Of a stretch of DNA of 64,000 bases, positions 44,859 to 63,300 are shown piece after piece. The position numbers and the translations under genes were made by a program. The stretch comes from Fluviicola sp. (GTDB lineage: Bacteria > Bacteroidota > Bacteroidia > Flavobacteriales_D > Crocinitomicaceae): positions 62,001 to 126,000 of the forward strand of contig JARWZO010000010.1 of assembly GCA_029866325.1 (NCBI GenBank). Reading direction: 5' to 3'. The stretch's first letter is position 1. The number at the start of each line of letters is the position of its first letter. The notes beneath the pieces were generated by a model. That model did not search any database. It was not told the origin of the DNA and saw only the letters and a list, made by a program, of their open reading frames with translations.

Positions 44859-45304
44859 GTGTTCTATGTTTTTAATGTGTTTTTCTTGTTTTTCGACTGT
44901 CAATCCGTTGGTCGACTATCGTGCTGTTTGATTGTATGACCAAGTAGGTGGCATTTTGTTACAGCGACTTTGAAAAAAAGTAGAAAAAAACTTAAAATAA
45001 TTTTTAAACAACTGTTTTTCAAATACATAGTAATATTGCAATATCACGCGAAAATTGCATTTCAGGACTTCGAATGTTGCCGGGCTCAAGTCAATTTGCT
45101 GTTTTATTCCCACAGATAACACGATTTTATGAGCCATTCCATTATACACCGTCAATCATTTAATCAGTCAGCGATTCCTTAACCCATTGATAACTTAGGC
45201 ATCAACCAAAATTTGTAATCTTACTAAATCCATTAATCGTTTATGGAAATTGAACGTTTACAGCATCTTAGGTGTAGTAGTATACACGCTAAAACAACAC
45301 TGCC

Positions 45305-46210
45305 ATGAAAAACATCGGAATCCATGAGCCTTGCTCTGAAAACTGGAACGAAATGTCACCGAATGAAAAAGGGGCTTTTTGTCAGAAATGCGCTACGCAG
45401 GTATACGATTTCACCAATAAAACCAGCCTGGAAATCAAGCAGACATTGCGTGAACTGATCGGTCAGCCGGTTTGTGGCAGAATCACCGGTCCACAGGAAG
45501 CAGCGCTAAACGCAGAGTTTGAGTTATGGAACCAAAAATCAAAACGCCGTTTGCAAAGCACTTTAGTTTTCTCATTGATCGTTGTTTTCGGGTTGACCTT
45601 ATTTAGCTGTTCACACGAACAGGATAAACAACAAATAGAACAATTGCAGGCAACGGCAATGAAAGCCATTGAAAAACAACAAGCCGGACAAACCGATTTT
45701 TCCGAAACCAACACCTCTGGTAAATCAATTACTCAGGAAATTGAAATCATTGAACCCGTAATGACTAAAATGCTTATTGAGGAAAAGCTGCTTTTACACA
45801 ATGAAACTATTGAAGAAGTGGAAATAATCCGCTACACAGATTATGGCGGGAGTTATGGTGGTGCAATGGAGTACAGCGTCACGTATCGCGAATTTTTAAT
45901 GGCTGAGGCTGAATTGGCTCCCGAATACGATCAAGAAGGCCGATTGATCCCAATTGAATTTTCTTCAATCGTTTTCCCTAATCCGGCGACAACCGAAACA
46001 ACTTTTGAACTGGCCGTTCCGGTTACCAATCAGTTTGAAATCAGCCTCTACGATATGAACGGAAAATTCATCCAATCAATTCACAGCGGCGAAATTCAAC
46101 GTGGAACATTTCAGCAGCAGATCAATTTAGCTGATCTGAATCCGGGAATTTACTTGGTTACTATTTTCTCGAAAGACTACAAAGAAACCGTTCGCATCAG
46201 CAAAATCTAA
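45305..46210 (+). CDS. Four-Cys N-terminal domain / TM / T9SS sorting domain protein, paralog 1
   Basis: N-term IHEPCSENWNEMSPNEKGAFCQKCATQVYDFTNKT...CGRITGPQE; TM LVFSLIVVFGLTLFSCS; C-term FPNPATTETTFELAVPVTNQFEISLYDMNGKFI...GIYLVTIFSKDYKETVRISKI. Confidence 0.85.
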   Translation: MKNIGIHEPCSENWNEMSPNEKGAFCQKCATQVYDFTNKTSLEIKQTLRELIGQPVCGRITGPQEAALNAEFELWNQKSKRRLQSTLVFSLIVVFGLTLFSCSHEQDKQQIEQLQATAMKAIEKQQAGQTDFSETNTSGKSITQEIEIIEPVMTKMLIEEKLLLHNETIEEVEIIRYTDYGGSYGGAMEYSVTYREFLMAEAELAPEYDQEGRLIPIEFSSIVFPNPATTETTFELAVPVTNQFEISLYDMNGKFIQSIHSGEIQRGTFQQQINLADLNPGIYLVTIFSKDYKETVRISKI

Positions 46211-46222
46211 AAACCCCGAATC

Positions 46223-47131
46223 ATGAAACACATTGGAATCCAAACACCTTGCTCTGAAAACTGGAACGAAATGACTCCATCAGAAAAAGGAGCTTTCTGT
46301 CAGAAATGCGCATCGCATGTGCATGATTTTACCCAAAAATCTACGCGTGAGGTTAAAGAAACGCTGAGATCTCTCATCGGGCAACCCGTTTGCGGACGTA
46401 TGACCGCTGATCAGGAAATGGCACTGAATGTCGAGTTTGAAACGTGGCAATTTCAATCAAAACATCAATTTCAACGCGCTCTTGTGTTTTCATTGGTGGT
46501 CGTTTTTGGGTTGACGCTTTTTAGCTGCTCGAATGAGCAGGATAAGAAAAATGTGCGTGAAATTCAAGAGACTGCTCTACAAGCCATGAATAATCTGTCG
46601 GTTGGAGAATTGAACAATGTTCCGGTTGATATTGTAGCTTCTAATTTTTCGGAAGTGCAATTACCGGTATTTTATGAAGAAAATCAACTAGAGCAGTATA
46701 TGATAGAAGCTTCTAGACCGATTTTATTAGTAGAAGAAAATCCTGATATAACAATGGTAATTGACAGAAACTATTATTTGGGCGGTGTCGGCTATTCCAC
46801 AGATTACATTGAATACTTAGTTTCCGAAAAACCAATTGTTGAAGAAAGGGATGAAACGGGTCGTTTGATTCCAACAAAATTTGCATCACTCGTATTTCCA
46901 AACCCTGCAACTACCGAAACAATGTTCGAGTTGGCCGTTCCTGTTACCAATCAGTTTGAAATCAGCCTCTACGATATGAACGGAAAGTTTATTCAATCTA
47001 TTTATAAAGGTGAAATTCAACGTGGAACATTTCAGCAGCAGATCAATTTAGCTGATTTGAATCCCGGAATTTATTTGGTGACCATTTTCTCGAAAGACTA
47101 CAAAGAAACCGTTCGCATCAGCAAAATCTAA
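46223..47131 (+). CDS. Four-Cys N-terminal domain / TM / T9SS sorting domain protein, paralog 2
   Basis: IQTPCSENWNEMTPSEKGAFCQKCASHVHDFTQKS...CGRMTADQE; LVFSLVVVFGLTLFSCS; C-term nearly identical to paralog 1. Confidence 0.85.
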   Translation: MKHIGIQTPCSENWNEMTPSEKGAFCQKCASHVHDFTQKSTREVKETLRSLIGQPVCGRMTADQEMALNVEFETWQFQSKHQFQRALVFSLVVVFGLTLFSCSNEQDKKNVREIQETALQAMNNLSVGELNNVPVDIVASNFSEVQLPVFYEENQLEQYMIEASRPILLVEENPDITMVIDRNYYLGGVGYSTDYIEYLVSEKPIVEERDETGRLIPTKFASLVFPNPATTETMFELAVPVTNQFEISLYDMNGKFIQSIYKGEIQRGTFQQQINLADLNPGIYLVTIFSKDYKETVRISKI

Positions 47132-47135
47132 CGCC

Positions 47136-48047
47136 ATGAAACACATTGGAATTCAAACTCCTTGTTCGGAAGACAGAGGCAATATGACACCCAACGAAAA
47201 GGGTTCTTTTTGTCACAAATGCGCCAAACAAGTCCACGATTTTACCAACAAATCGACAGGTGAAATCAAACAAATCTTCCGTGATATGATGGGTCAGGAA
47301 ATTTGTGGCAGAATGACTTCAGATCAGGAAATCGCACTCAATGCCGAATTCGAAGCGTGGAAATTTCAATCGAAACAAGGGTTTCAGCGTGCCATGGTGT
47401 TTTCGTTGGTCGTTGTTTTTGGATTAACACTTTTCAGTTGTTCAAATGAGCAGGACAGGCAACAAATTAAACAAATACAAGCCGTTGCGTTGAATGCAAT
47501 GAACGTTTCAGCTGGGGAAACACCTGATTCCAAATCTATTGAACAACAAACACTTCATGAAAATGAGGTGCTGCAGTTGAAAAAAATCAGAGGTAAATAT
47601 GAAGCCTATTTAGAGCCAGATTGCATCTATGATATTGAATACGCCATTCCGGAAGAACAGCAGATTATCTACCAAACACAAATCGACGGTGGAATCGGAA
47701 GTAGCATGGAATACCGGGATTACCTGAGAGCAACCGATATTAAGGTAATTGATGAGCAAGAATTGGATGAACTCAGACAAATCATTCCAACCGAATTTGC
47801 AGCAACCGCTTACCCAAATCCAACAGCAAACGTTACCACTTTCGAACTAAATGTTCCGAATAAAACCAGATTTGATGTTGGTTTGTACGACATGAACGGA
47901 AAGCTGATTCAGAAAGTTTGTGACGGAAAAATCAACCGTGGCACGTATACGCAGGATTTGGATCTTACGAATCTGAATCCGGGAATTTACCTGTTGATCA
48001 TTTCCTCTGAAGATTACAAAGAAACCATTCGCATTAGCAAGATTTAA
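47136..48047 (+). CDS. Four-Cys N-terminal domain / TM / T9SS sorting domain protein, paralog 3
   Basis: IQTPCSEDRGNMTPNEKGSFCHKCAKQVHDFTNKS...CGRMTSDQE; MVFSLVVVFGLTLFSCS; YPNPTANVTTFELNVPNKTRFDVGLYDMNGKLI...GIYLLIISSEDYKETIRISKI. Confidence 0.85.
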   Translation: MKHIGIQTPCSEDRGNMTPNEKGSFCHKCAKQVHDFTNKSTGEIKQIFRDMMGQEICGRMTSDQEIALNAEFEAWKFQSKQGFQRAMVFSLVVVFGLTLFSCSNEQDRQQIKQIQAVALNAMNVSAGETPDSKSIEQQTLHENEVLQLKKIRGKYEAYLEPDCIYDIEYAIPEEQQIIYQTQIDGGIGSSMEYRDYLRATDIKVIDEQELDELRQIIPTEFAATAYPNPTANVTTFELNVPNKTRFDVGLYDMNGKLIQKVCDGKINRGTYTQDLDLTNLNPGIYLLIISSEDYKETIRISKI

Positions 48048-56761: not shown

Positions 56762-56814
56762 TCCAATTATTTGATGCTAAAAGTAGTGGAAATAGCCATG
56801 TATAAACGGCAAAG

Positions 56815-56932
56815 TAGAATAAATCGGTGTTAATTCTTACTTAAATACAGCTTCGTAACCGGGTTGTATATTGACTAAATCGGTTTTCTGAACCGTGTTT
56901 TTACCATCAAACAAAAGTAGCGACCAATCAAT
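56815..56932. repeat. 118-bp direct repeat, left copy (duplicated 3' end of the 58643..59126 gene)
   Basis: Differs from 58621..58738 at 4 positions by hand alignment; flanking sequences diverge abruptly. Confidence 0.9.
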
Positions 56933-57168
56933 GATTGTCTTGTTTCAGCGAAATGTTAAAATGAACTTGGCTATATAATAGTAAAAAAGCACTTTTTTGA
57001 GGGATAATGACAATTTTCATTAGAGCCTTCCCTCATGATTTTAAAAAACAGAATATCACAATTATTTCTGTTCGACTAATTTTAGTCAAAGTAAAAACTA
57101 TACTAATACAATTATATTGAAAGAAAATAATATCTTAGCAAAACTTTAAAACCAAACATTATTCATTC

Positions 57169-58077
57169 ATGAACTTATCATCTTATAATGTCACTGGAAG
57201 GAATTACTATTTTGTAAGAACAGAAAGGGGGGCATTCTTCGACACATTTGTACAAAAAGGATACATTGGACTTCTATGGAATGAAATATCTAAATCAATG
57301 TTAAGTTCTCTTGATATAAATAATCAAGACTTAAGAAGATTACTTGAAAGAACCCATGCTGTTCAACTTTCAAGACAAAATGAAGTTTCCCAAGCTCGTA
57401 CAATATCAACAATCATAAATAAACTCATCACTTTCAGAGATTTAAAAAAAGGTGATATTGTTTTGATACCTTCTGCTGGAACTTTTAATATCGCATTTGG
57501 GGTAATTGATGATGATGAAGTCTATAGTCAACTTGATGAAAATCCTTGTCAAAAAAGACGAAAAGTAAAATGGATTAATCAAGTAACATATCGAAGACTC
57601 GATGCCAAATTCGCATACATTGCAAAATCCTACCATGCTATTTCCGAAATTGATCAGCAGTATGCCGATGTAATAAATGCTTATATGTTTAAATCATATA
57701 TAGATGATACACACGGAGCGATTAATCTTAAAATTGACAAAGAAGGTCCGATTCATTACAGAGATGTAAATACCGTTATTCAAGGAATAATCAGTATTGC
57801 AAATAAGTATAACGAGAAAAACGGAATAGAAGGTAATTATGATGATTTAGAGATTCTTGTAAATCTTCAATCACCTGGTTTTTTAACATTAAAAAGCTTG
57901 GAAATCGCGGGAAAAGGATTGATTTTTGCTCTCGCTTTGATTACCTTAGGGTGTACACAGCAACGAAGTCGCGAAGAAGATAGTCAGCTTGAACAAATCA
58001 AGAGTGATTACTCTATTGATACTGATGAATATAACGAAACAATAGAAACACTGGATTCATTAAGATACCAGCCATAA
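57169..58077 (+). CDS. Putative PUA/EVE-like domain protein with hydrophobic C-terminal segment (candidate defence component)
   Basis: N-term YYFVRTERGAFFDTFVQKGYIGLLWNEIS and KKGDIVLIPSAGTFNIAFGVIDDDEVYSQ...CQKRRKVKWINQV resemble the sensor domain at the N-terminus of some restriction-like proteins; C-term SPGFLTLKSLEIAGKGLIFALALITLGC. Confidence 0.7.
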   Translation: MNLSSYNVTGRNYYFVRTERGAFFDTFVQKGYIGLLWNEISKSMLSSLDINNQDLRRLLERTHAVQLSRQNEVSQARTISTIINKLITFRDLKKGDIVLIPSAGTFNIAFGVIDDDEVYSQLDENPCQKRRKVKWINQVTYRRLDAKFAYIAKSYHAISEIDQQYADVINAYMFKSYIDDTHGAINLKIDKEGPIHYRDVNTVIQGIISIANKYNEKNGIEGNYDDLEILVNLQSPGFLTLKSLEIAGKGLIFALALITLGCTQQRSREEDSQLEQIKSDYSIDTDEYNETIETLDSLRYQP

Positions 58078-58080
58078 GAC

Positions 58081-58530
58081 ATGAACTTCTTTAGTATATT
58101 CACTAATAAAAATGATCTTGCCAAATCTCTTGCAATCGGAGGTTTGATGACGTTGTTGTTTAGTTTGATATACCCAATCGAAAAACAAAAAGAGCTTGAC
58201 CTTATGATTGTTGATTGTCAGTACAAAAAGATTGAACTGAACGGATCAATAGATGAGGCAAATACCTTTATAGCCTCTTTAAGCAATAAAGATTCTAAGA
58301 TGAGTGTAGCCGACCAAAAGAAAATCGCTATGGAAATGTCAGCAAAACTGCGACTACTTAAACTCGAAATCTCTCATTTAGATTCAAAGATTTCTGTTAC
58401 AAGAAAATATGTTAATGAATATGGTTTCTATGTATGGTTATTATTTTGGGGTGGTTTATTGGGATCTCTCATAGGAGTCCTCTTTTGGTCTATTTCAGGA
58501 ATCAAGGAGCATAATAAAAATCATCCGTAA
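58081..58530 (+). CDS. Small two-TM protein with central coiled coil, partner of the upstream gene
   Basis: TM1 LAIGGLMTLLFSLIYPI, coiled-coil middle, TM2 VWLLFWGGLLGSLIGVLFWSISG; starts 3 bp after the upstream stop. Confidence 0.65.
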   Translation: MNFFSIFTNKNDLAKSLAIGGLMTLLFSLIYPIEKQKELDLMIVDCQYKKIELNGSIDEANTFIASLSNKDSKMSVADQKKIAMEMSAKLRLLKLEISHLDSKISVTRKYVNEYGFYVWLLFWGGLLGSLIGVLFWSISGIKEHNKNHP

Positions 58531-58620
58531 TCATACTTACTTAAAATCTCGACTCACAGTTCTTTATTCTAAAAGAGACACATCCTTTGAAAGTAGGCTT
58601 CTGTATCTGTATTGTCAAAT

Positions 58621-58738
58621 TAGAATAAATCGGTGTTCATTCTTACTTAAATACAGCTTCGTAACCGGGTTGTATATTGACTAAATCGGTTTTCTGAATC
58701 GTGTTTTTACCGTCAAACAAAAGTGGCGACCAATCAAT
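58621..58738. repeat. 118-bp direct repeat, right copy
   Basis: See 56815..56932; this copy is the 3' end of the intact lipoprotein gene. Confidence 0.9.
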
Positions 58739-59134
58739 TGCGGTATCGCCCGCATGGAAGGTTTTAACACTTCCGTTCAACAAGTGAAATCGCACACTTT
58801 TTTCGGAAGTAGTAATCGTTTTGACGCCTTTATCTTCTAAAAAGCTGGTCGATTCGGAAAAATACCATCCATAATCGTCCATAACGGTGAAAAAGTCTTC
58901 TTCACCGATTTCTTTTTTCAACCGTTCCAATTCAGCATCCGAAGGAGTGAAAAACACGCCACAAGCTTTCCCGATTTCAAACGTGCTATCGGTTTCTATG
59001 ATGGTGTCGCGGTAGCTCAATGCCGGTTCTTTCGGAACCTCAATTTTAGTTTCAACAACCGTATTGCTTTCTTTAGTAGTCGTACAGGCTACTGTGAGCA
59101 GTAACAAGAGTAAAATGGGAAGAATAAATCGCAT
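58643..59134 (-). CDS. Hypothetical lipoprotein
   Basis: MRFILPILLLLLLTVACTTTKE lipobox; complete ORF. Confidence 0.65.
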   Translation of the reverse strand: MRFILPILLLLLLTVACTTTKESNTVVETKIEVPKEPALSYRDTIIETDSTFEIGKACGVFFTPSDAELERLKKEIGEEDFFTVMDDYGWYFSESTSFLEDKGVKTITTSEKSVRFHLLNGSVKTFHAGDTAIDWSPLLFDGKNTIQKTDLVNIQPGYEAVFK

Positions 59135-59171
59135 AATCATTTCAATTGTAGCTTTCTTGGAATTGGATGTT

Positions 59172-59378
59172 TTATTTCAAACGTCCCATTACCTCATTAG
59201 TTGAACTCGTACCATCTTTCTTGATCGAAATCCGCGCTTCTTCTATAGCATCTAATTGTTGTTGCGAAAGTGTTGGTTCCAGTTCATCCAACCGAATAAA
59301 ATCAAGCGTTTTGATATATTCCAAAAAAGCTTTTGCTTTAGGCCCCGAAGCATCATCAATATGAAATGTATATATCAT
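59172..59378 (-). CDS. Small hypothetical protein (68 aa)
   Basis: MIYTFHIDDASGPKAKAFLEYIKTLDFIRLDELEPTLSQQQLDAIEEARISIKKDG...; coding status supported by a diverged second copy at 60218..60299. Confidence 0.6.
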   Translation of the reverse strand: MIYTFHIDDASGPKAKAFLEYIKTLDFIRLDELEPTLSQQQLDAIEEARISIKKDGTSSTNEVMGRLK

Positions 59379-59677
59379 GCTATTTGCTTTTAAGCATCAA
59401 ATATTAGGATGATTATCTTTTCAGAAAAATCACCTTTCAACAAAGATAAGCTAATATTTAGAGCCTGTTTAAATTTGTTCTGATTTCATTCTTATAAGCT
59501 ATTTTGATGCGGTTTGAAACAAATAATCAACATTGGAAAGCCTTAAATTAATTAGCAACGGCGGTCATTCTACTTTAGGAGACCTTTGATAACTTCAATG
59601 TTAAGATGCAATCTTTTTTCTTTGTGGTTTAAGAACTAGTTAATATATTGTCATCCTAAACCAATTAATTTATCACT

Positions 59678-60070
59678 ATGAAAACAAAAAAAATCTTTTT
59701 GTCTGTACTAGCAATCTGCTTTATTTCTTTAAGCTCATTCGCAAACAATGAAGACAATGGGAAGAAAAACCCAAGTGAAACAAATCAAGTAACAATGTCA
59801 ATTGCTGAGTTGAAAGCGAGGTATGCAACAATTGTGTTTGATGGTGATTTGAGTACATTGTCACAAGTAACAATGCTTGAATCTGCAAGTCCATGTAATG
59901 GTCTTCAATCGTGTGGCGCTGCTTCAGCTCAAGCAAGACATGAAGCTCAGCAATTAGCAAACGATTGTTGTTGTGTTGTAACTTATGGTTATGAGTGTTG
60001 TGATCCTGATACGGGATCTCAAATAGCGGTTTTGTTTATTACAATGCCAAAAGGTAATTGTGTTAATTAA
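59678..60070 (+). CDS. Small secreted cysteine-rich protein
   Basis: Signal peptide MKTKKIFLSVLAICFISLSSFA; eight Cys in the mature part (SPC, QSC, DCCC, ECC, NC); followed by a terminator. Confidence 0.65.
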   Translation: MKTKKIFLSVLAICFISLSSFANNEDNGKKNPSETNQVTMSIAELKARYATIVFDGDLSTLSQVTMLESASPCNGLQSCGAASAQARHEAQQLANDCCCVVTYGYECCDPDTGSQIAVLFITMPKGNCVN

Positions 60071-60217: not shown

Positions 60218-60299
60218 GAATAAAATCAAGCGTTTTGATGTATTCTAAAGAAGCTTTTGCATTCGGACCAAAAACATCATCAATATGAAATGTATATCA
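60218..60299 (-). pseudogene. Truncated, frameshifted copy of the 59172..59378 gene
   Basis: Reads DDVFGPNAKASLEYIKTLDFI, matching DDASGPKAKAFLEYIKTLDFI; 2-nt deletion after ATGATATA; truncated next to the solo MITE end. Confidence 0.75.
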
Positions 60300-60377
60300 T
60301 GTGTTTGGTTATAAACATCAATTGCAGAGGTGATCATCCAGAAAGACAATCACCTCTTCTAAAAACATAAGCTATTA

Positions 60378-63300
60378 TTAATGAGTAACTGATAGTTTTT
60401 GAGCCGTTCTGGCTTGACTTGTAGTGAAAACCAATTGGTACATACCACTATCCAAGAAACTTACATCGGTTTGCATTGTTCCCGGCGAAACGGAAATTGT
60501 TTTGAGTAAACGTCCGCTTGCATCATACAAGTTTGCCATTACTGTTTGACTTGTACTATTTTCCAATGTAAGCTCACCGTTTGTTGGATTTGGATAGACT
60601 TGCATATTCGCTGCCAACAATTCATCCAGCGACGCATTTGCGGTTTGTAAACGATTGTCTTTGTTGGAACGCGCACTGTTAAAGTCTTGGTTCATGCTTC
60701 TTGTAGAAGTACACGTTGCAGGCGGATCAACCGTTACCAAATACACCAAACCATCAGTTGTAGGCGGCGTATCGGTGTAAGTAAACAAGTTGGTTGGCAT
60801 AGTGGTCAATGTTGTCCAACTATCTACATCCGTGTGGCGTTTGATCACAAATTCAGGGAATGCGAATCCTTCGTAACTATCCCACGACAAGTTGATGTCT
60901 GCCCCTAAACCAAGGTTGATTACCAAGTGAATGGTTTTATGATTTTCGCTTATTTCCGATTCTACACCACAAGCATCAACCGAAGCAATTTTGTACCTCC
61001 AAGAACGCACTGAAGGCGAAGCTACCAAATCGTTGTAAATCGATTCATCCGAATACGGAACGTTTCCGATCAATTGGTACAATCCTGCTTGCGATGTTTC
61101 GCGATAGATATTGAACGATTCAATGCCCAATGTGATCGGTTTTTCCCATACTACAAGGTTGGTATTCGTATTCGTATCAACGGTTACCAAACAAATATCA
61201 ACAGCAATTGGCAAAGCAGCATCTACTTGGGCGCTCAAAACGGTTGTACAACCGTTGGCTCCTGTTGCTTCTACTACATAAATTCCCGGGGCCAATCCGG
61301 AAATGTTTTGTGTAGTGGCTCCATTGCTCCACACAAAGGTTTGTGCGTTGTTGGAAATATTCACCAAATCGATGGATCCGTCATTCGCGCAAGAAGAAGC
61401 GATCACTGTATCTATGGCAATTACAGGTCCATTGGTATTCGAAATCAAGACATTGGTTGTTAAAGTACAACCATGAGCGTCAGTAACATTCGACGTGTAC
61501 ATTCCGGCTGCTACATTTGAAAGTGTTCCTGTTGTGACATTCAGGTTAGTACCTTGATCGTTGAACCAGCTGTAAGTATATGGCAATGTTCCACCAACAA
61601 ATTGAATGGTTGCTCCACCGTTACTTGAACTACAAGAAGCCAAAGTTGTGGTTAAGTTGTTTACAATAATCGCTTGTGGCTCGGTAACCACATAACTGGA
61701 TGTAGAAACACAACCGTCCTGATCAGTAACCGATACTTCATAAGGTCCGGCGGTGATATTGGTCAAATCTTGGGTAGTTGCACCATTTGACCATGCATAG
61801 GTAAGTGCACCAATTGCTCCGGTTACTGTCAAGTTAATACCACCATCAGCTTCACCGGCGCAACTTACATCAGTAACATTCGCTGTTTGTGTAATTCCAT
61901 CGGTTCCGATTAAGACCGATTGGGTTGAAAGACAACCGTTGTCATCCGTTACAGACAAAAAGTATTGGCCCGAAGCCAAGTTCGTAACACTTGATTGCGT
62001 TGAACCACTACTCCAATAAATATCGTACGGACTTAAACCCTCTGTAATTGCTACCGCTGCACCACCATTGGCCGAATTACAATCTGCATCGGTCGTAGTA
62101 ACGTTTAAAATAGGAGCCGGTGCAACAGTAACATCTACTGTGCTCGCAGCTGTACAACCATAAGCGTTGGTCTTGGTATACGAAAGTGTAATATTCGTTG
62201 GTGAAGAGACAGGACTATATCCCGGATAGAGTATATTGTTCTGAACTCCCGGCCCAGACCAAGTTCCACCTTGCGGCACCACTTTATTGACCAGACTGAC
62301 CGGTACTGCATTCTCACATACGGTTGCGTTAGGAAATACAAACTGAATATTCGGTTTTGGGTTAATGGTAATCGGAACAAAAAGAGAACCGACCTGAACA
62401 CCGTTTTCAAAAAGAATCCATTCCAAATCGACAATTGTAGGCGCAGCCACCGCGTTGGTGGTAGAAACAGTAAGGTACCAGTATAAATTATCGGCTGAAG
62501 GATAAATGGCGATTGCAGATTGTGGCAAAACAGCTGTATTTTGAGACGTACACGTCATGGTCATGTTCGTATGGCTGTAATTCGGGTCAAGGCAATAGAT
62601 TGCATTGTCACCACCGTTGTTAAACGATGTTCCTTCACACATGGAAAGGTTATCGTAATCTTCAATATTGGCATTTTGGTTGTACTCTTTCACCAAACAT
62701 TTTCCACTACTTACGTAAGCAATTACATGTACTCCGTAATACGTCTCGGCAGCCAATGATGTCGCATTTGTTGGTGCCAAGGTTGTTCCTGAAGTAATCG
62801 TAGTTGAAGTTGGTGCCATGGTACCCGTAAGTTGTTTGAAATAGCAGGTAGTGCTGCTTCGGTAGAACACAAATGCGTTGTCATTCTGCGTATCGAAATC
62901 AAAATCGGCCAGCAAAGTAGATGATTGAATGGTAAGTTCCGTTCCGAAGGTAGAACCATTGAAAGCTTTAAAATTCAATTGTGGAGTAGCGTCGGTGTTT
63001 TTCCATATCATACAGATATTATTGGTGCTTAGCCCTTTTTCTGCTTTCATTTTGGTAGCCCCGTCTGTTCCGGAAAGTGAATAACCATTCCAAACTGACC
63101 CGTTGAATTGATCGAAAGGCAAATAATCACCAATATCATTTTCCTCGTGTGCTACAGTCACATTGTTACCTGTTCCGGCCCAACTTGTAACGGCATTCCC
63201 GAAATTGCCCTGATCCAAATCAGCGGCAGAACCTGCGCCCAATTGGGTGAGCGTAGAAAGGTTAATGGTAATCAAACCTAAGGTATAGGTATTCGTGCGG

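What the first reader, a model, noticed from the sequence alone, without database searches (positions are those of the whole stretch)
56815..58738. Two-gene candidate defence cassette bracketed by 118-bp direct repeats that duplicate a host gene's 3' end
Seen: 56815..56932 and 58621..58738 differ at only 4 of 118 positions by hand alignment and diverge sharply outside. Between them lie just two co-oriented, AT-rich genes (57169..58077 and 58081..58530, 3 bp apart) that stand out in a housekeeping region. The repeat is the 3' end (about 32 codons plus 22 bp) of the neighbouring lipoprotein gene on the opposite strand. Inference: a small cargo was inserted at, or exchanged through, that gene's 3' end and carried a replacement end, leaving the old 3' end as a scar. 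This resembles integrative elements that use gene 3' ends, but no integrase or transposase was found.
Basis: partly seen in the sequence, partly recalled or inferred. Interest (0 to 1): 0.8.

Follow-up and report, generated by a model that had tools for sequence, protein, structure and literature searches.

The report
Defence gene pair with duplicated insertion site
A freshwater bacterium has acquired a two-gene cassette, probably an anti-phage alarm (a base-reading sensor plus a membrane partner), that landed in the tail end of a host gene and left a 123-base copy of that tail behind, an integrase-free style of insertion that recurs at about eight places in this genome.

Summary
Confirmed. 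Two direct copies of 123 nt (96% identical) bracket a two-gene, AT-rich cassette. The closest relative held (Fluviicola, about 84% nt identity) has the same neighbours with no cassette and one copy of the repeat. The copy next to the M42 gene keeps the native downstream flank, and both of its derived changes are non-synonymous: it is a decaying scar. No integrase is present. A census of 51% of this genome found eight such gene-3'-end/cargo/scar arrangements and none in three control arrangements, so this is best read as 'insertion with long target duplication', known from Helicobacter restriction-modification genes, rather than site-specific integration with a replacement end. Gene A is a PHROG 10226 protein. 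Its predicted N-terminal fold is that of YTH/EVE modified-base readers, the same domain is fused to Mrr nucleases in PDC-S02-type proteins, and A ends in a membrane helix. Gene B is a two-helix membrane protein. Of 18 A relatives, 15 have a two-helix membrane gene at their 3' end, against 8 of 80 background genes; annotated phage copies sit by the integrase. Most likely it is a Rex-like abortive-infection pair with a YTH/EVE-type sensor. Defence activity is inferred, not shown.

The parts
56810..56932 (-). Repeat copy 1: orphan 3' end of the lipoprotein gene (scar), in its native place next to M42
   Evidence: 96% identical to copy 2; continues into G011's native M42-lipoprotein spacer; two derived non-synonymous changes
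57169..58077 (+). Gene A, 302 aa: predicted YTH/EVE-like N-terminal domain, second alpha/beta domain, one membrane helix (residues about 244-262)
   Evidence: phrog_10226 E 1.5e-39; PDC-S02 N-domain E 5e-16; model pLDDT 81; fold search; membrane helix by hydropathy
58081..58530 (+). Gene B, 149 aa: membrane protein with two predicted helices (13-31, 120-138) and a charged, probably coiled-coil middle
   Evidence: hydropathy; homologues beside A in six Fluviicola and in G438
58616..58738 (-). Repeat copy 2: 3' end of the intact lipoprotein gene
   Evidence: derived changes are one synonymous and one downstream of the stop
58643..59140 (-). Lipoprotein ORF, 165 aa, whose 3' end was the insertion target
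   Evidence: orthologue in G011 at 79% aa identity
55718..56761 (-). M42 peptidase gene, conserved left neighbour of the site
   Evidence: Pfam PF05343 E 7.5e-88; found in the genus genomes

Best explanation
A two-gene cassette entered the Fluviicola chromosome by insertion with long target duplication. 123 bp spanning the last 32 codons and about 27 bp downstream of a lipoprotein gene were duplicated around it, so the gene stayed intact and an orphan 3' end remained on the M42 side. The likeliest molecular route is single-crossover integration of a circularised or tandem DNA fragment carrying a short piece of host homology, or a template switch that re-copies the target; the cassette encodes no recombinase. 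The cargo probably works as a membrane-tethered phage alarm: A's YTH/EVE-like domain recognises a modified base or another phage nucleic-acid feature, and A then activates B, a two-helix membrane protein, which damages the membrane and aborts infection. Shown: the duplication, the empty site, recurrence of the signature, the domain architecture (by prediction), the conserved A plus two-helix gene arrangement and its prophage location. Inferred: the recombination route, the ligand, A-B interaction, the membrane effect, and defence itself.
For: Empty site in the closest relative held. The scar keeps the native downstream flank and has two non-synonymous derived changes. Eight gene-3'-end/cargo/scar cases in 2.40 Mb against 0 with the scar on the 5' side, 0 inverted and 0 at 8-30 kb; at C19:162421 the scar also keeps the relative's flank. 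Published precedents: insertion with long target duplication (PMC1643837, PMC3031569) and single-crossover lacZ duplications of 109-950 bp in E. coli (PMC3240628). Cargo: phrog_10226, N-domain shared with PDC-S02 and with Mrr nucleases, YTH/EVE fold matches, two-helix partner at 15 of 18 relatives against 8 of 80, phage copies beside the integrase and mostly a CI-type repressor.
Against: The recombination route is not determined by sequence. Only one relative has the target gene, so the empty site rests on one genome, at about 84% nt identity. The census covers one genome, half of it, and only two of its sites were compared with a relative. YTH/EVE matches have E-values of about 0.002 and the target-normalised TM-scores are near 0.5. 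The short B-like ORFs in phages share topology, not detected sequence similarity, with B. No functional data. Six other Fluviicola carry A-B stably at a fixed site without mobile genes, which could suggest a host role.
Confidence: 0.6

Rival explanations
1. Remnant of a site-specific integrative element (CIME-like): the 123-bp repeats are attL/attR, the element carried a replacement gene end as e14 does at icd, and its integrase was lost or acts in trans.
For: Gene 3' end as target; A relatives do ride on integrase-bearing elements: phages and an apparently tRNA-integrated 8.6-kb element in G522.
Against: No integrase; the target is rare even in the genus; the copies are far closer to each other than to the relative; many unrelated targets with repeat lengths from 58 to 310 bp share the signature, which one recombinase would not explain.
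Confidence: 0.2
2. Tandem duplication of the lipoprotein gene followed by replacement or loss of most of one copy, with the cassette arriving later between them.
For: Would also leave a 3' fragment on the M42 side; the left flank beyond the repeat shows borderline similarity (32 of 1000 shuffles).
Against: The homology ends sharply on the right (250 of 1000 shuffles). Decayed tandem copies should leave 5', middle and 3' fragments, but eight of eight 3'-end cases here have the 3' fragment on the 3' side with cargo between. It needs two events.
Confidence: 0.1
3. A-B is not a defence but a housekeeping or stress-response membrane pair that happens to have moved.
For: In six other Fluviicola the pair sits at one fixed chromosomal site with no mobile genes or similar flanking repeats nearby.
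Against: Patchy distribution (13 of 395 phylum genomes, several of them by the N-domain alone), carriage by phages and a satellite next to the integrase, and a sensor domain shared with Mrr nucleases.
Confidence: 0.25

Closest known systems
Insertion with long target duplication of restriction-modification genes in Helicobacter pylori (Nobusato et al. 2000, as described in PMC1643837 and PMC3031569)
   Same: Foreign defence-type gene(s) flanked by long, variable-length direct repeats of the target; no transposase; the empty allele exists in a relative.
   Different: Host group (Bacteroidota), cargo (not restriction-modification), gene 3' ends as the visible targets, and several cargo types in one genome.
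RexAB-type abortive-infection systems (lambda; Pseudomonas putida, PMC12894663)
   Same: Two genes, a nucleic-acid-type sensor and a membrane partner, placed beside the repressor in prophages.
   Different: A has no detected RexA similarity, carries its own membrane helix and a YTH/EVE-like domain; B has two helices; no activity shown.
PDC-S02 (PADLOC candidate single-gene defence)
   Same: N-terminal domain matches the PDC-S02 models.
   Different: PDC-S02-type relatives end in an Mrr nuclease; A ends in an alpha/beta segment and a membrane helix and has a partner gene.
EVE/YTH/DCD modified-base readers of type IV restriction systems (PMC7641849)
   Same: Predicted fold class, and use as a modification sensor linked to nucleases.
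   Different: A is membrane-tethered; a text search of that survey finds no 'transmembrane', so this arrangement seems not to be described there.
PHROG 10226
   Same: A matches the family over residues 11-260 (E 1.5e-39).
   Different: PHROG lists it as unknown function; here it is chromosomal, without a phage around it.

Membership tests
Insertion with long target duplication | Insert flanked by long direct repeats of target sequence | tested here: met
   123 nt, 96%
Insertion with long target duplication | Related genome with an empty site and one copy of the repeat | tested here: met
   G011, L038 7158-7280
Insertion with long target duplication | Variable repeat length at unrelated targets, no recombinase in the insert | tested here: met
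   58-310 bp at eight sites; no recombinase among the insert ORFs seen
Site-specific integrative element (attL/attR) | Integrase gene in the element | tested here: not met
   only A and B lie between the repeats
Integron gene cassette | attC sites bracketing the cargo | tested here: not met
   the repeat is coding sequence without attC-like ends (read directly); attC-like repeats elsewhere in the genome look different
PDC-S02 | N-terminal domain of the model | tested here: met
   residues 12-173, E 5e-16
PDC-S02 | C-terminal Mrr nuclease as in its relatives | tested here: not met
   no Pfam match in A; Mrr_cat in five relatives
RexAB | RexA homology of the sensor | tested here: not met
   no RexA among PDB sequence or top fold matches
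RexAB | Partner causes membrane damage on phage infection | not testable with these tools
   needs experiment
YTH/EVE (PUA-like) domain | Fold | tested here: inconclusive
   nearly all of the top 50 PDB matches are YTH, plus the EVE protein 2gbs; probability about 1 but E about 0.002 and target TM about 0.5
YTH/EVE (PUA-like) domain | Binding of a modified base | not testable with these tools
   needs experiment

The most novel reading that the evidence does not exclude
A widespread, undescribed two-gene abortive-infection system in which a membrane-tethered YTH/EVE-type modified-base reader triggers a small two-helix membrane effector; it is normally carried by prophages and, in Fluviicola, is also moved without any recombinase by a recurrent long-target-duplication insertion process that preferentially captures defence-type genes.
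Probability: 0.35. Interest if true: 0.8.

Novelty: new variant of a known kind. Interest (0 to 1): 0.6.

Why it matters
How small defence cassettes without mobility genes enter chromosomes is poorly understood. Here the footprint is explicit (empty site, scar, polarised mutations) and recurs about eight times in half a genome, so the process could be counted and tested. The cargo adds a conserved sensor-plus-membrane gene pair, with a predicted base-reader fold, to the pool of untested phage defences.

Tried and rejected
(1) Single-protein and alignment scans of genome contigs for A: the first found nothing, the second five records from Fluviicola-type genomes. (2) First structure model from seven close sequences was poor (pLDDT 44); a 21-sequence alignment gave pLDDT 81. 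(3) Pfam and NCBIfam for A and B: nothing useful. (4) Extension of the homology beyond 123 bp: right side no, left side borderline. (5) Flanking repeats like this one around A-B in other genomes: not found in the five loci scanned; G522 has a tRNA-like 43-bp repeat pair instead. (6) Integron: an attC-like array exists elsewhere in the genome but is unrelated to this repeat. (7) The empty-site test for the RNA-ligase site failed because the target gene is missing in G011; for leuS the relatives' loci could not be retrieved. (8) RexA homology: not found. (10) PDC-S02 in the literature: only listed as a candidate system in the one paper read.

Full report
OBSERVATION. The repeat is real: 56810-56932 and 58616-58738, 123 nt, 96% identical, five differences. 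Between them lie two + strand ORFs, A (57169-58077, 302 aa) and B (58081-58530, 149 aa), at GC 0.32 against 0.41 in the flanks. The repeat holds the last 32 codons of the lipoprotein ORF 58643-59140 (-) and about 27 bp beyond its stop. A whole-genome search with the region found no other match.

EMPTY SITE. The genus is Fluviicola (record titles). The nearest genome held, G011, has M42 (98% aa identity), lipoprotein (79% aa identity) and the large repeat-rich secreted protein in direct succession, with one copy of the repeat and no A or B. Other genus genomes have M42 but no detectable full lipoprotein orthologue. The M42-side copy continues into the relative's M42-lipoprotein spacer; the lipoprotein-side copy does not, apart from a borderline similarity. 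So the M42-side copy is the native end in its native place, and the cassette plus one copy was inserted.

AGE AND POLARITY. The two copies resemble each other (96%) much more than either resembles G011. Polarised by G011, the scar has two derived changes, both amino-acid changing (P->L, I->V, visible in the translations), while the functional copy has one synonymous change and one downstream of the stop. The sample is small, but this is the direction expected for a dead copy and a constrained copy after a duplication, and it gives no sign of an imported replacement end.

RECURRENCE. I scanned 2.40 Mb (51%) of the genome for direct repeats in which one copy lies in an ORF of 90 aa or more and the other does not. 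With repeats of 50-450 bp, at least 80% identical and at most 8 kb apart, eight cases have the gene's 3' end duplicated with the orphan on the gene's 3' side and cargo between. There are none with a 3'-end orphan on the 5' side, none in inverted orientation, and none of this kind at 8-30 kb. Sites in addition to the finding: C17:168163 (80 bp, RNA ligase plus HD/AAA_33 kinase-like protein), C19:162421 (107 bp), C21:156809 (149 bp, DUF5694), C21:241973 (86 bp), C5:61436 (104 bp, end of a 1031-aa gene that I read as leuS, Fic protein), C5:211935 (58 bp, AAA_14/DUF4143), C7:5627 (310 bp). Two of these cargoes match PADLOC models (SoFic/PDC-S04 and PDC-S01). For C19 the scar again keeps the relative's downstream flank. 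The 3' bias can be explained by selection: only insertions that leave the gene intact and its promoter in place survive. That is inference. Some cases could be paralogue remnants; only two sites were compared with a relative.

MECHANISM OF INSERTION. The pattern matches 'insertion with long target duplication', described by Nobusato et al. for H. pylori restriction-modification genes (quoted in PMC1643837; 'long and variable target duplications' in PMC3031569). An experimental route exists: in E. coli, single crossover between a circular molecule lacking part of the homology and the chromosome gave lacZ duplications of 109-950 bp (PMC3240628). Homology-facilitated illegitimate recombination, proposed for Vibrio immunity-gene arrays (PMC5361080), is a related possibility; a ComEC-type competence gene is present, which is weak support because the family is common. 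I cannot separate these routes with sequence alone. A site-specific integrase element is less likely because there is no integrase, the target is a rare gene, and many unrelated targets share the signature.

THE CARGO. A has no Pfam or NCBIfam match. It matches phrog_10226 over residues 11-260 and PADLOC PDC-S02 models only over its N-terminal part. Five Bacteroidota relatives of the N-terminal domain join it to an Mrr nuclease. The 21-sequence model of A is good (pLDDT 81, pTM 0.76), and nearly all its top PDB matches are YTH domains plus an EVE protein; E-values are modest. A full-length structural match exists in a myovirus. A has one predicted membrane helix near its C-terminus. B is a two-helix membrane protein. 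A-B pairs occur side by side in six other Fluviicola at one fixed site (about 31% and 24% identity to the window's proteins) and in G438. Over 18 loci, mostly viral contigs, the gene next to A's 3' end is a two-helix membrane protein of 50-220 aa in 15 cases against 8 of 80 background genes (Fisher p 1.6e-9), often convergent; the loci are not all independent and the short ORFs are mechanical calls. Annotated copies in Streptococcus and Fusobacterium phages and a satellite lie close to the integrase, three of four after a repressor-type gene.

HOW IT PROBABLY WORKS. By analogy with RexAB, where a sensor encoded by the CI gene activates a membrane partner that damages the membrane (PMC12894663), A would sense phage nucleic acid through its YTH/EVE-like domain and switch on B. 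A membrane-anchored prophage protein causing abortive infection with membrane changes is also known in Staphylococcus aureus (PdpSau, PMC10127798). Sensing, interaction, membrane damage and protection are all inferred here. A is not filed as PDC-S02 (no nuclease domain) nor as RexAB (no RexA homology).

VERDICT. Observation confirmed; interpretation partly supported. The insertion is a new member of a known process in a new host group. The cargo is a new, untested variant of the sensor-plus-membrane type of prophage-borne defence.

Noticed in passing
G000 contig C12, about 114.3-130.3 kb (L143, L144): Integron-like array: three 127-141 bp repeats (95-97% identical) with attC-like ends, more diverged ones further on, beside a tyrosine recombinase of 359 aa.
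   Followed up: partly
window 59294-59458 and 60218-60379: A second, older bracket next door: about 165 bp, 79% identical, holding the 5' end of a 68-aa ORF and its upstream region, around a 130-aa secreted protein gene (59678-60070); the whole block is absent from G011.
   Followed up: partly
G000 C4:19877-20448 and C5:128649-129231: Two copies of a short unit: near-palindromic 67-77 bp direct repeats around a 115-aa ArsR-like gene; looks like a small mobile unit.
   Followed up: no
L118 6651-15293 (G522): An A relative lies in an 8.6-kb element with a tyrosine-recombinase-like gene, bounded by 43-bp direct repeats that look like a tRNA 3' end.
   Followed up: partly
Gene A residues 244-262 onward; same place in six Fluviicola relatives: The membrane helix ends in an invariant Gly-Cys that resembles a lipobox in the Fluviicola proteins; not conserved in the phage relatives.
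   Followed up: no
L069-L074: In six Fluviicola the A-B pair follows a conserved operon of related proteins with 'RELLNAPFPELVRTLG'-type motifs of unknown function.
   Followed up: no
CP034120.1 (L079, apparently G003): A record titled Glaciecola amylolytica (a gammaproteobacterial name) matches a genome placed in the window's Fluviicola genus; the label looks wrong.
   Followed up: no
window 45304-48047: Diverged direct repeats with a period of about 918 bp.
   Followed up: no
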